NCBI GenBank assembly: GCA_032718865.1
Contig: JALUTQ010000045.1
Location: forward strand, 806,001-870,000
Source: Tilletia caries
Taxonomy: Eukaryota; Basidiomycota; Exobasidiomycetes; Tilletiales; Tilletiaceae
Reading direction: 5' to 3'
DNA length: 64,000 nucleotides
Both the position numbers and the translations under genes were made by a program. Positions 9,913 through 15,900 of the stretch are shown here, piece after piece. The stretch's first letter is position 1; each line of letters starts with the position of its first letter. Under the pieces are notes generated by a model. The model was not told the DNA's origin, searched no databases, and was given only the letters and a program-made list of their open reading frames with translations.

Positions 9913-12900
9913 ATGTCTGCCGCGTCTGCGTCCGGCATACTGCCTCCGGAAGCGCAATACACATCCGAATCCGATTTTCAAGCTGCTATGCGTGAATTTA
10001 CTGCGACAAAAGGATATGCGCTCGTTCTCGGACGCTCCCATCTAACAAAAAAGGGACTTCGACGTACATTTTATCAATGCGACAGAGGCGGAGAATATCG
10101 AGACCGGCACGGGATGAGCGAGATCGAGCGTCGCAGAAATCGTGGAAGCCGATTGTGCGGCTGCAAATTTCGCATCAAATTGAACGAAGCTATCGATGGC
10201 TCGTACTGGCTACTACACGAAGCGAGTCCGGAGCGACGGAAGCACAATCACGAGCTCAGTACGCTGTTGTCTGTGCATCCGTCACTCCGGAAGCTGGACG
10301 ACGAGACAACAAAAGCAATAGAACGTCAGATTTCAGTCGGCATCACGCCAAAAGAAATCCTAGCGCTCCGCAATAGCGTTCCTGGAGCAGTCGTGTCAAT
10401 TCCACGGGACATATACAACATTGCGGCGAGCTCAAGGCGCACAGCGACCCACTGCTTGGAGCCGCCAGAAGCGCTGCTTGCCCATCTCAGGTCGGAAGGA
10501 TACCAAACGGCGGTTCGCTCAGAGGCGGTGACTACGAACACTCAGAGGGTCACCGCACTTCTCTTTTCGCATGGCCAGGCTATCAACCTCACCATTCGGT
10601 ACCCCCTTGCGATCACCATCGATGCCACATACAAAACAAATAAATATAGTATGCCACTCGTCCATATAATCGGTTTGACGGCCACAGGTAGTACGTTCTG
10701 CTCGGCAATCGCCCTGGTCTCTCGGGAGCGTGAAGAAGATTACCTCTGGGTCCTCAGCGAGTACAAAAAAATGATGGGCGAGCTCGGTGTCCATGTCGTC
10801 GTCACGGATCGAGACGCGGCGCTTGGTCTGGCTGTCGCCGCGGTCTTCCCCCTGGCGCAACATAACCGATGTCGATGGCACATAAATAAGAACATTGCGA
10901 CCAATTGCAAAGCTTTCTTCACCGACGACACATTCACCGAATTTCAGCGATCATGGAGTCAGGTCGTCACGTCCAAATCAGAGCAGGATTTCCAGGATAA
11001 TGCAGATGTTCTTCTCTTGACATTGGACGACCTCCCCTACGTGCACAGCTACATCTCAGGACTGTTGGAGCTCAAGACGGAGATTGTTACGATCCGATTC
11101 ACTCGAGCTGGAGGAGGACCGAAGGGGAGAAGCCTCGTAGGTCGCGTTGGGAGAGTGGAGAGAAGAGAGAGAGAAGGAAGAGGAAGGAAGTTAGGTATGA
11201 GAGTGTGAAGGTCGAGTACCGAAGTGAGTACCGAAGTTGAGTTGAAGGTTGAGGTTGAAGGTCGGTCTCGAGGTGAGTACCGAAGTGAGTACCGAGGTCG
11301 GAAGCAACGACTGTGGTAGGAAGGAGGAGCTCGAGAGGGATCAGGTATGAAAACCCAAAGAGAGGAGCTGAGAAGAGTGTGGAAACTCAAGGGGGGTGTA
11401 ACATATGATTGTCGCTTGAAGAGAGAAGAGTAGGTACAAGTGGGAAAGAGGGCTGCTTATATACCTTTGAGGGTCAAGTTAGCGACGAAGGGGAGCGAAG
11501 GAGAAAGATAGCGAGGAAGGGAAGCGAGGAGGGAGAAGTGAGGCAGGAGAGGAGAGGAAGCCGAGAGGGGAAGGAGGATCGAGGCGGGAGAGGAGAGAAA
11601 GCCGAGAAAAAGAAAGAAGTCGTACGATGTCGAAGGTTTGAGAAGCGAGCCAAGACTTGCTGAGAGGACTCGGGGATCGGTGTGGCGTTGATGGTGTGAT
11701 GTGGCGCGGAAGTGGAGTGCCGAAGGAGATGTGTCATGTGGAGCGGAAGTGGAGTGCCGAAGGAGATGTGTCATGTGGAGCGGAAGTGTGGAGCCGGAGT
11801 GGGAGTGGAGGCGGAACACGGGAATCGGAGCTCGGAGACGGAGATAAGAGAACGGGGACTAGATTGAAGGCGCATAAGGTAGCAAACCTAACAGTACCCC
11901 CCTGTTTAAGGGAGGAGCTCCTGCGACGATGGATCAATGCTGGCGAAGGCGCTTGGCGGGACGGCTGAGTTCGATGATGCGGGAGTTGAGCTGTGGGCGA
12001 AGGTCTTGCTGCCAAAGGGTCTTGATGGTGAGAAGGTCTTGCTTGCTGGCTTGGACGGACGAAGCACGGTCGGCGAGCCAAAGCTTGAGAAGATTCTCGT
12101 GCTCGTTGAGGACTTCGTTGAGCAGGTCCTGGTCGTGGTGAAGAGCGATCGAGGTTTCGATGTCCCACTTGAGGAGGCGAGGAATGCTGATCAAATCCAA
12201 AGGCTGGTGGACTCGGTAACCGGCGAGGCACGAAGGCGTAAGGGCGAGGACAGCGTGGAAGGTGCCCAAGGGGAGATGGATCTTGCAACCGGGAGTAAGG
12301 TGAACCATCTTGCCTTGTTCGAAGTGCTTGATGGCCTCGAAGAGCCAAGAGGCGTCGCCGCGGTGGTATTTGGAAGCGAAGAAGAGGTTGGAAGCAATCG
12401 GAGGCCACATGAAGATGATTTTCTCGCCAAGGAGCTGGATGAGAATGGAGGAGTCCATGACGCCATCTTGATGAACTTCGGTGATGTGACCGGCAGGCGT
12501 GATAGCCATGCTGATGTCGGGCTTGCCGCCAGAGGCAGGATGTCCATAAGAGGCGGTGTTGGCATCGATGGAGTACTCGCAGTCCTTGATGCCGAAGGTG
12601 GAAGACGGGCGAATGTCGAGGGCGGCAGACAAGGTGGAGGCCACGTCGGCGGGTAGATCGGCCTGGGTGCTGTAGAAGAGGCTGCGGTCGACCTCGAGAG
12701 CAGAGCCATGATCGAGAGGGATGCTGGTGGCAGAAGAGATGAGTGCCGTGTCGGAATTGTCCTTGTGATTGAGGTCGGACTTGACTTGAGGCCACCAAGG
12801 GGCAGTGTTGAAAGAGTTGAGTATGTCCTTGGACAAGAAGGGGAAGGCCTGCTGCTGAAGGTGTTTGTCGTAGGCGAGGTCGAGAGTCTTGATGCCTTTT

Positions 12901-15900
12901 TTTGAAAGTGGGAAGGGTGGAAGGGAGGCGTTGCCAGGCCTCGAGGAGGGGACGAGGCGCACGCTGACCTTGATGGGTGATGTAGGGATGAGCGCGGTTG
13001 TGTTTGCGAGGCCAGTGGCGCTTGGCGGAGTCCCAGTCGTTGAGGACGTAACCACAGCCGAGAGAAGGGCAGAGACCAGGAGTGAAGGCGAAGGGCATGT
13101 TGAGTGGATGTGGTGGATGTGGATGTTGGTGGTGGTCGATGGTGGTGGTAGTGAAGAAGGATGAAGTTGCGGGTTTCGGAAGCTTTTGTAGGCAAAATTC
13201 GTTGCGCAATGATATTTCGGCCGAGAAAGACCGTGGGAAAAGCCGACAAGGAGCCGAGACCAGTACCGAGGTGAGTACCGAAGTCGATATTGAGTGGAGT
13301 ACCGAAGTCAGTCCCGAAGTTGATCAGGGTACTTGTGGGCCGGGCTTGTCTGGATATCGGAGATGAAAGTCGGCGATATGGTCGGGGCAGCTGAGCTGAT
13401 CAACAGGTTCCCATGTGAAGCGGTCAGGACCCGTGTAGCCAGACCATTCAACCAAGTAACGAAGAGGATTGGTGTAGCGTCGGTCGATCTTGCTGTCTAC
13501 AACGCGTTCGACTTCGTATTCGGCTTGGCCGTCAACTTCGACAGGAAGGGGTGGCGGCTGTGTACGGCCGACGATGATGTTGGGCTTGTGAGGCTCAAGG
13601 AGGCTGACGTGGAAAACGTTGTGGATCTTCATGGATGCTGGAAGTTGCAGTCGATACGCGTGGCTGGAGATCTTGTCAAGGATCTTGAAGGGGCCGAGGA
13701 AGCGGAAGTCAAGCTTACCCGCAGGGCGCTTGGTCTTGATGTTTTTGCTGGATAGCATGACCATGTCGCCGACGGTGAAGTCAGGCGGCGGCATGTGCTT
13801 GGTGTCGTAAGCGCGGGAAGAGCGCTCATTGGTGAGGGAGATCTGTTCGGCGCAGAAGGAGTGGACGGAAGAAAGTTGTTTTACCACGGATGTGGCAAGT
13901 GGGTGGTATGGGTTGTCGTGTCCAACGACTTCTGCAGTGGGAGCTTTGAGGTCAAAGGAAGGGTGGTAACCCTTGTTGGCGAAGAAGGGCGTAGTTTTTA
14001 TGGTGGAGTGCTCGGAATTGTTGTATGCAAACTCGGCGAGAGGTAGGAAATCGGACCAGTCGGATTGTTGATAGTTGGTGAAGTTCCGAAGGTATTGCTC
14101 CAGGCTTTGATTAACTCGCTCGGTCTGACCGTCTGTTTGAGGATGGTAGGCGGTGCTAAGGGCTTGTTTGATGCCAAGGAGTTTGCAGAGGGAGCGCCAG
14201 AAGGAAGAAGTGAACTCGCTGCCGCGGTCAGAGACGATGGTACTTGGGAGACCGTGCTTGGCGAAGACGTGTTGGAGATAAAGTTTGGCGAGGTCCTGAG
14301 AGGTCATTGTGGTGTAAGTGGGGATGAAGATGGACATCTTTGTGAGACGCTCGACAATGACTAGGATCGAGTCGAAGCCAGAACTAGCAGGAAGGGCCTC
14401 GATGAGGTCCATAGTGACGTCGGTCCAGGGGTTTGTCGGGACAGACAGAGGCTTGAGGAGACCGTATGGCTTGTGTCTTTGCGGCTTGGTACGGGCGCAG
14501 GAATCGCAGGTGTCGACGTAGTTGTGGATGAACTTGCGCATGTGAGGCCAGAAGAAGTCACGGCGCACCAAGTCGAGAGTTTTGCGGCGTCCGTGATGGC
14601 CTGCGAGGGGATGGTCGTGTCGAGACTTGAGGACATCGACGCGGAGCGTCTCGGGGACGTATAGGCGCTGTTGGTGGAGAAGAAGACCATCGACCTCTTG
14701 AAAGTCGACTCGGTGGTCTTGAAGATGAGGATCTTGATCGTAGGCTTGACGGAAACGATCGAGCAGCTCGGGATCAGCTTGAACGGTGTAAATTGACCGA
14801 GCTTGAGCTGTGGAAGAGAAGTTGTGTCTGTTTTCTGGAAGAAGGGTCTTGAAGTTCTGAGGGTTGTTGTCGGCATAGTGTTTGGTTGCTGTGCCGGGAT
14901 GGTAGTCTGGACGACGCGTGAGAGCGTCAGGCTTGCCGCCTAACAGTCCAGGCCGGTAGATGATCCGGAAGTCGTAATCGACTATGAATATGGACCAACG
15001 AGCTTGACGACGATTAAGGAGCTTGGAAGTCGTGAAGTACTCGAGGTTCTTGTGGTCGGTGAGGATGGTAACCGTGTGCTGGGAGTCCATGAGCAGGTGT
15101 CTCCAGCTCTCGAGGGTGTCGACGATGGCCAACATTTCCTTGTCGTGGATCTCGTAGTTGAGCTCTGCTGCGGTAAGCTTGCGAGAGCGGAAGGCCACTG
15201 GGTGGAGGATGTCGTTATCGTCGGGTTGAGAGATGACCGCTGCGAGGGCGTAGTCGGAAGCATCGGTTTCCATCGTGATGGACTTGGTTGGATCGAAGTG
15301 TTGGAGAATGGGTGCCGAGGTGAAGGCACGCTTGAGGGTGTCGAAGGCTTCCTGGCACTGAGGTGTCCATTTCCAGGAAGTATCCTTGCGGAGCAGAGCC
15401 GTGAGAGGCGAAGTGACTTTCGAGTATTGCCAGATGAAACGTCGGTAGAAATTGGCGAAGCCCAGGAAGGACTGGAGATCCTTGACGGTCTTGGGCTCAG
15501 GCCAGGAAAGCACTGCATCGACCTTTTTCCGTAACCATCTCGACACCGCTGCCGCTGATCTTGTACCCGAGAAACTCGACAGAGTCTTGGAAGAAGGAGC
15601 ACTTTTTCGGGCTTGGCGTAGAGGTGGGCGGAGCGAAGGCGTTCGAGGACTTGCTGGACGTGCTTCTTGTGGTCTTCAGGGTTCTCGGAGAAGATGAGGA
15701 TGTCGTCCAAGTAGATGACGACGCTTACGCCTTGAAGGTCGCGGAAGACGTCGTTCATGAACCGCTGAAAGGTTGAGGGGGCGTTGCAGAGTCCGAAGGG
15801 CATCACCAGGTATTCGAAGCTTCCATATCGAGTCCGGAAAGCGGTCTTCCATTCATCGCCTGAAGCGATGCGAAGGAGGTTGTAGGCACCTCGGAGGTCG

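What the first reader, a model, noticed from the sequence alone, without database searches (positions are those of the whole stretch)
11934..13098. A chromovirus carries a third ORF with a C2H2-like finger and a JmjC-like Fe(II)/2-oxoglutarate domain
Seen: an ORF of about 387 residues in the env-like slot between integrase/chromodomain and the 3' LTR, same strand as pol. It has C-x4-C-x12-H-x4-H near the N-terminus, HQD (209-211) followed by GEK and WPP, and a distal His (281) about 70 residues later. Known: JmjC enzymes use HxD...H for iron with a Lys/Thr for 2-oxoglutarate; chromodomains of chromoviruses read histone methylation. Inference: an element that both reads (chromodomain) and might erase heterochromatin marks could open its own copies for transcription. 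I know of no described chromovirus with such a gene.
Basis: partly seen in the sequence, partly recalled or inferred. Interest (0 to 1): 0.88.

Follow-up and report, generated by a model that had tools for sequence, protein, structure and literature searches.

The report
Retrotransposon gene resembling a histone demethylase
A jumping gene in a wheat-bunt-type fungus carries an extra, conserved gene that looks like a chromatin-mark-erasing enzyme with a DNA-binding finger, which may help it escape silencing by its host.

Summary
The third ORF is real, but the window copy is not one open frame: the finger (13000-13071) and the JmjC-like core (about 12213-12491) lie in different frames. A second copy (C4) and a Tilletia controversa/laevis protein are open for 387 aa. 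The ORF sits between chromodomain and 3' LTR of a young LTR element inserted with a GAGAT duplication in a MULE gene. Relatives occur in T. walkeri, T. horrida, T. caries and one JGI cluster, as two subfamilies 25-28% identical. T206, H209, D211, K226 and H281 are invariant in 10 of 10 aligned rows. Profiles match KDM2/KDM7 demethylases: PHF8 E 0.0013, 14 of 20 hits KDM2/7/PHF. Pfam gives no JmjC call, the subfamily-B profile alone finds none, and no fold could be predicted. Best reading: an Fe(II)/2-oxoglutarate oxygenase carried to counter host silencing; demethylation is inferred. Transposon-borne DNMT, TET/JBP, SET and VANC genes are known; my searches listed no JmjC-bearing LTR retrotransposon. 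A same-orientation 12-bp motif array lies in both LTRs, pol and just before ORF3.

The parts
11085..11893 (-). 3' LTR (TGTTAGG...GTAACA)
   Evidence: 99.9% identical to the 5' LTR; BLAST prints 11085-11894, one flanking base matches by chance
18281..19090 (-). 5' LTR
   Evidence: 0 substitutions and 1 gap in 811 aligned columns against the 3' LTR
11080..11084 (.). target site duplication GAGAT (left)
   Evidence: read directly
19091..19095 (.). target site duplication GAGAT (right)
   Evidence: read directly
17172..18191 (-). gag ORF with C-x2-C-x4-H-x4-C knuckle
   Evidence: open frame; its 339-aa counterpart in C4; start and knuckle read by eye
15853..17133 (-). pol, protease to start of RT (one frame; the pol frame changes after it)
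   Evidence: Pfam aspartyl protease hits; ORFs
13324..15546 (-). pol, RNase H, integrase, chromodomain frame
   Evidence: Pfam RNase H, H2C2, rve, SH3_Tf2-1, Chromo
13363..13518 (-). chromodomain
   Evidence: Pfam Chromo E 5.6e-9, residues 677-728 of the frame
13255..13323 (-). 12-bp motif array between pol and ORF3
12898..13098 (-). ORF3, N-terminal frame (residues 1-67) from its ATG
   Evidence: 98.5% identical to residues 1-67 of the C4 protein
13000..13071 (-). C2H2-like finger (residues 10-33)
   Evidence: fits C-x(2,4)-C-x3-[LIVMFYWC]-x8-H-x(3,5)-H, a pattern recalled from PROSITE
11934..12914 (-). ORF3, C-terminal frame (residues 62-387 and stop) with JmjC-like core and basic tail RPAKRLRQ
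   Evidence: 98.8% identical to residues 62-387 of the C4 protein
12465..12473 (-). H209-Q210-D211, predicted Fe(II) ligands
   Evidence: PHF8/KDM7 alignments; invariant H and D
12420..12422 (-). K226, predicted 2-oxoglutarate-binding Lys
   Evidence: aligned with GEK of PHF8; invariant
12255..12257 (-). H281, predicted distal Fe(II) ligand
   Evidence: aligned with HAV of PHF8; invariant
11208..11312 (-). 12-bp motif array in 3' LTR
18404..18508 (-). 12-bp motif array in 5' LTR
   Evidence: same array in the other LTR
16345..16528 (-). 12-bp motif array inside pol, between protease and RT

Best explanation
ORF3 is an accessory gene of a Tilletia chromovirus lineage. It encodes a protein with one N-terminal C2H2-like finger, a JmjC-type Fe(II)/2-oxoglutarate oxygenase core closest to the KDM2/KDM7 group, and a basic, nuclear-signal-like tail. 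Shown: position in the element, conservation, finger pattern, profile similarity and invariant catalytic-position residues. Inferred: it is nuclear, it folds as a JmjC double-stranded beta helix, it binds iron and 2OG, it demethylates a histone lysine (H3K9 is a first guess, because PHF8/KDM7 enzymes and chromodomains deal with repressive methyl-lysines, recalled), and it thereby keeps the element transcribable, guided by the finger and/or by the chromodomain-integrase at new insertions.
For: Two full copies with LTRs and 5-bp duplications carry the gene. Full-length relatives of 383-387 aa share 55-62% identity with P0001; subfamily B is homologous over 336 columns including the finger (hhalign E 2.2e-28). 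T206, H209, D211, K226, N237, G278 and H281 are invariant in 10 of 10 rows. Profile A3 against the PDB: PHF8 E 0.0013, 14 of 20 hits KDM2/7/PHF; A8 core: 14 of 20, with asparaginyl hydroxylase and YxbC also listed at E about 0.8; A5: 11 of 17, E 0.044; subfamily A alone: 5 of 7, E 0.057. Basic C-terminal tail in 4 of 4 subfamily-A proteins.
Against: No Pfam JmjC match above threshold; only JmjC_2 (best E 0.03) and Cupin_8 (best E 0.051) below the cut-off. Subfamily B alone gives 0 of 4 JmjC hits. Profile comparison with four of the five host JmjC matches is not significant; a local hmmsearch against the same host stretches gave only marginal scores of at most 6.2 bits, one of them (C1) to a stretch that is not JmjC. 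The top hit of A8 was an LRR protein, summed from repeats. No fold was obtained. No expression or substrate data. For subfamily B, and for the relatives in other species, a direct join to pol was not seen.
Confidence: 0.55

Rival explanations
1. A JmjC-type oxygenase with another substrate: a protein (or nucleic-acid) hydroxylase acting on a host silencing factor, on chromatin proteins other than histones, or on the element's own Gag/integrase.
For: Weak single-sequence match to JMJD5 (E 0.51, ahead of KDM7 E 1.9) and profile matches to asparaginyl hydroxylase and YxbC; a small protein in which the Pfam scans saw no PHD, Tudor or CXXC reader.
Against: In the four profile searches that found JmjC chains, the best of these are KDM2/KDM7/PHF.
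Confidence: 0.2
2. A JmjC-derived chromatin adaptor that works without catalysis, as argued for fission-yeast Epe1 (recalled): finger and fold tether a complex that keeps chromatin open.
For: Low sequence similarity to known enzymes; C4 carries HED in place of HQD, still a permitted HxD.
Against: Predicted Fe and 2OG positions are invariant in 10 of 10 rows across two subfamilies 25-28% identical, which argues for kept catalysis.
Confidence: 0.13
3. The JmjC resemblance is convergent; ORF3 is an unrelated accessory protein of the env-like slot.
For: No Pfam JmjC call; subfamily-B profile finds no JmjC chain.
Against: Alignments to PHF8 and a KDM7 homologue in the T-H-D-K-H register; spacing pattern in 5 of 18,000 shuffles. 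No call looked for membrane segments.
Confidence: 0.1
4. Chance ORF or passenger host fragment without function.
For: Broken frame in the window copy.
Against: Open at full length in C4 and in relatives from other Tilletia species with patterned conservation; no near host paralogue found in this genome.
Confidence: 0.02

Closest known systems
KDM7/PHF8 and KDM2 JmjC histone demethylases
   Same: T-x2-H-x-D ... K ... H in the same order and nearly the same spacing; best JmjC profile matches
   Different: Carried by an LTR element; C2H2-like finger in place of PHD or CXXC (recalled for KDM7/KDM2); below Pfam recognition
TET/JBP dioxygenases carried by fungal DNA transposons (Kojima 2025, PMC12730594, passages seen)
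   Same: A mobile element in fungi carrying an Fe(II)/2OG oxygenase thought to oppose silencing
   Different: Different enzyme family; [quoted passage not shown]
Cytosine methyltransferases in retrotransposons (de Mendoza 2018, PMC5890265, passages seen)
   Same: Epigenetic enzyme acquired by retrotransposons with key residues kept
   Different: Writer of DNA methylation, not an oxygenase; other hosts and element types
VANC anti-silencing proteins of VANDAL transposons (Hosaka 2017, PMC5735166, passages seen)
   Same: Element-coded factor; short motifs arrayed in one orientation inside the element
   Different: VANC is not a JmjC protein (recalled); binding of ORF3 to the motif is untested
Chromoviruses (Ty3/Gypsy with chromodomain integrase; Muszewska 2011, PMC3248453, passages seen)
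   Same: gag, protease, RT, RNase H, integrase, chromodomain, LTRs, 5-bp duplication
   Different: Extra ORF3; the term JmjC does not occur in that survey's main text

Membership tests
Chromovirus (Ty3/Gypsy) | Integrase followed by a chromodomain in pol | tested here: met
   Pfam rve and Chromo in one frame
Chromovirus (Ty3/Gypsy) | LTRs with TG..CA ends and short target duplication | tested here: met
JmjC oxygenase | HxD/E...H iron triad | tested here: met
   invariant in 10 of 10 rows
JmjC oxygenase | Lys/Thr for 2-oxoglutarate at the KDM2/7 positions | tested here: met
   T206 and K226 invariant and aligned with PHF8
JmjC oxygenase | Recognised by a curated JmjC family model | tested here: not met
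   only JmjC_2/Cupin_8 below their cut-offs; Pfam JmjC did not flag ORF3 in the whole genome either
JmjC oxygenase | Double-stranded beta-helix fold | not testable with these tools
   structure job failed
KDM2/KDM7 demethylase | Significant similarity to the family above other JmjC families | tested here: inconclusive
   best JmjC hits; E 0.0013 at best; JMJD5 first with one sequence; 0 of 4 with subfamily B alone
KDM2/KDM7 demethylase | Histone lysine demethylase activity | not testable with these tools
   needs a biochemical assay
C2H2 zinc finger | C-x(2,4)-C-x3-hydrophobic-x8-H-x(3,5)-H (pattern recalled) | tested here: met
   4 of 4 subfamily-A proteins; the 3 full-length subfamily-B proteins have C-x4-C-x13-H-x3-H, outside the strict pattern; no Pfam finger above threshold
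TET/JBP dioxygenase | Match to a TET/JBP profile | tested here: not met
   no such family among the Pfam hits
VANC-like self-targeting | Same-orientation motif arrays in the element's non-coding parts | tested here: met
   but one array lies in pol, and related LTRs without the ORF nearby share motif pairs
VANC-like self-targeting | The element's protein binds the motif | not testable with these tools
   needs a binding assay

The most novel reading that the evidence does not exclude
A chromovirus with a built-in reader-eraser cassette: the chromodomain-integrase steers new copies to methylated chromatin, and ORF3, guided by its finger to 12-bp CACTTCGGTACT-type arrays in the LTRs, pol and its own upstream spacer, removes the repressive histone mark there. 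It would be a histone-level, self-targeted anti-silencing system, a counterpart of VANC in an LTR retrotransposon.
Probability: 0.18. Interest if true: 0.9.

Novelty: new variant of a known kind. Interest (0 to 1): 0.7.

Why it matters
Mobile elements are known to carry DNA methyltransferases, TET/JBP oxygenases and SET methyltransferases (PMC5890265, PMC12730594, passages seen). A JmjC-type gene in an LTR retrotransposon would extend the arms race to histone demethylation, and in an element whose integrase already carries a methyl-lysine reader. It would make the question whether an element can erase the mark it uses for targeting directly testable in one gene. Conservation across Tilletia species suggests lasting benefit to the element (inference).

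Tried and rejected
Literal 387-aa ORF in the window: rejected. Pfam JmjC call: none. Host donor: the genome has 5 matches to Pfam JmjC. By eye, three look KDM4/5-like and one JMJD6-like (labels recalled); the fifth, a partial match, was fetched but not compared. The four are not near ORF3 by profile comparison, and a local hmmsearch gave only marginal scores, so no donor was named. IMG/VR scan with A5: 30 pattern matches, none confirmed. Third protein search with A5: 6 proteins; it did not return P0006-P0008, and only the 7,999 candidates sharing most words were scored. The GAG query was in a wrong frame, so its GAG rows were not used. The two extra ORFs of the C40 element have no Pfam match; one of them was also compared with the PDB, with no useful hit. 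A motif exclusive to ORF3 elements: rejected in part. Novelty searches listed no paper on a JmjC-bearing LTR retrotransposon; several lists were capped (for example 15 of 77 papers, 10 of 80), and subscription papers and preprints are mostly not covered.
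Full report
WHAT IS THERE. The element lies on the minus strand between LTRs 18281-19090 (5') and 11085-11893 (3'), which differ by 0 substitutions and 1 gap in 811 aligned columns. It is flanked by GAGAT on both sides. It interrupts a Mutator-like (MULE) transposase ORF (9745-11208; Pfam MULE E 7.7e-28); the continuation right of the element was not tested by Pfam (one search failed). Gag, protease, RT, RNase H, integrase and chromodomain are present, pol being split over more than one frame (gag and RT judged by eye and by similarity to the other copies). 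The genome, 38.1 Mb in 40 contigs, belongs to the Tilletia controversa/caries/laevis group by inference: the closest protein, 99% identical to the C4 copy, is named T. controversa / T. la..., and a T. caries assembly of 38.18 Mb is listed (PMC10684912, start of abstract seen).

ORF3. In the window the finger-coding start (ATG at 13098) and the JmjC-like remainder are in different frames. The other full copy (C4:2241581-2249583, duplication CCTTG) has one 387-aa ORF, and P0001 (cluster of 5 sequences) is 387 aa. Between the two genomic copies there are 7 substitutions and 14 one-base gaps; 13 of the 14 gaps are in homopolymer runs of 5-7. Such a pattern is typical of long-read assembly error (recalled), so I do not read the broken frame as biology. 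In the ORF3 span the three substitutions are two amino-acid changes (residues 17 and 210) and one silent change.

CONSERVATION. The first protein search gave 4 proteins among 5,102 candidates: T. controversa/laevis, T. walkeri (62%), T. horrida (62%) and a JGI cluster (54%). A second search with a profile gave 9 proteins among 8,000 scored candidates (a capped set), adding subfamily B, 25-28% identical, in T. caries, T. horrida (three) and T. walkeri. Subfamilies A and B are homologous over 336 columns, finger included (E 2.2e-28). In the 10-row alignment A4, T206, H209, D211, K226, N237, G278 and H281 are invariant; two of those rows (P0005 and the C33 locus) are the same in the core, so about nine are independent. 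Rows P0005, P0009 and the C33 fragment lack the N-terminal finger region. The basic tail RPAKR/RPSKR is in 4 of 4 subfamily-A proteins. All named hits are Tilletia; the JGI cluster is unnamed. The genomic surroundings of the database proteins could not be seen.

IS IT JmjC? One sequence alone gives weak JMJD5 (E 0.51) and KDM7 (E 1.9) hits, the only two below E 10. Profiles: A3 (4 A + 1 B fragment) PHF8 E 0.0013, 14 of 20 hits KDM2/7/PHF; A5 (4 A + 4 B) PHF8 E 0.044, 11 of 17; A2 (A only) KDM7 E 0.057, 5 of 7; A6 (B only) 0 of 4; A8 (core, 9 sequences) 14 of 20, PHF8 E 0.0018, behind one LRR protein whose score is the sum of repeats. Many of these chains are the same few proteins, so the counts are not independent. 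The printed alignments (PHF8; KDM7 homologue) put H209/D211, K226 and H281 on the H-x-D, GEK and HAV of the enzymes. Pfam gives no JmjC match above threshold, and profile comparison with four host JmjC domains is not significant, though the iron residues line up. I put the JmjC fold at about 0.85 and histone demethylation at about 0.5 (judgement).

RELATED ELEMENTS. Of 12 stretches fetched for comparison (L006-L017), ORF3 relatives occur in L006 (C4) and in L015/L016 (an inverted pair at C33), and not in the other 9, some of which may not span a whole element. At C33 the subfamily-B gene is followed by two further ORFs, the second only in part, which also occur after pol in the C40 element (L007; pol 67-68% identical, LTRs 99.3%). 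L007 and C33 are 93% identical from L007:3628 downwards, and pol similarity in L007 ends at 3625, so L007 looks like an element that lost chromodomain and JmjC gene by deletion or recombination. This supports, but does not show, that subfamily B too sat behind pol. In L009, of a family 43-50% identical in pol, the LTR begins about 120 bases after the pol match, leaving no room for an ORF3. The window's LTR has 20 matches in the genome: two full elements (4 LTRs), three full or near-full single LTRs (two of them with 5-bp duplications), and 13 partial matches.

MOTIF ARRAY. A 12-bp unit (CACTTCGGTACT and variants) recurs, mostly with 12-bp spacing, in both LTRs, in pol between protease and RT, and directly before ORF3, in one orientation: 22 matches at up to 3 mismatches of a 13-bp form on the sense strand of the 8-kb element and 0 antisense, against 14 on both strands of the other 56 kb of the window. 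All 9 exact GAGTACCGAAGT 12-mers of the window's + strand lie in the element. Genome-wide, CACTTCGGTACTC occurs 27 times against 2 for the reversed control; 15 of the 27 lie in this family's elements and single LTRs (compared). Against exclusivity: I fetched the surroundings of the other 12; motif copies or pairs occur there without any match to ORF3 or pol in the fetched 2-8 kb, five of these stretches holding a diverged piece of this LTR. VANC21 of Arabidopsis recognises short motifs arrayed in the same orientation inside its own element (PMC5735166, passages seen). Binding of ORF3 to the array is a hypothesis only.

NOVELTY. De Mendoza 2018 (passages) reports DNA methyltransferases in retrotransposons. 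[quoted passage not shown] Eight searches of the held library listed no paper on a JmjC gene in an LTR retrotransposon; I saw listings, several of them capped, and passages of the papers cited. I therefore call it a new variant of a known kind: a mobile element carrying an epigenetic modifier.

Noticed in passing
window 11208-11312, 13255-13323, 16345-16528, 18404-18508: Same-orientation 12-bp motif array in LTRs, pol and the spacer before ORF3.
   Followed up: partly
L007:877-1971 and L007:2854-3444 (C40): Two further accessory ORFs of unknown family behind pol in a related element; weakly similar to each other (BLASTP E 0.003 for the single pair).
   Followed up: partly
C33:244696-248900 (L015): 1.9-kb near-perfect inverted duplication (99.7%) carrying the degraded subfamily-B JmjC-like gene.
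   Followed up: partly
window 9745-11084 and 19096 onward: MULE transposase gene apparently split by the element; only the left part was tested by Pfam.
   Followed up: partly
window 29662-30005 and 37102-37452: 97% identical direct repeats around a degraded Gypsy pol (30681-33001), probably another LTR element.
   Followed up: no
window 3548-3766 and 5731-5949: 219-bp direct repeat, 99.5-100% identical, 2.2 kb apart.
   Followed up: no
window 41286-41797: Tandem repeats inside a 1322-aa ORF (minus strand) coding a repeated GDTTALxxVKGT-type unit.
   Followed up: no
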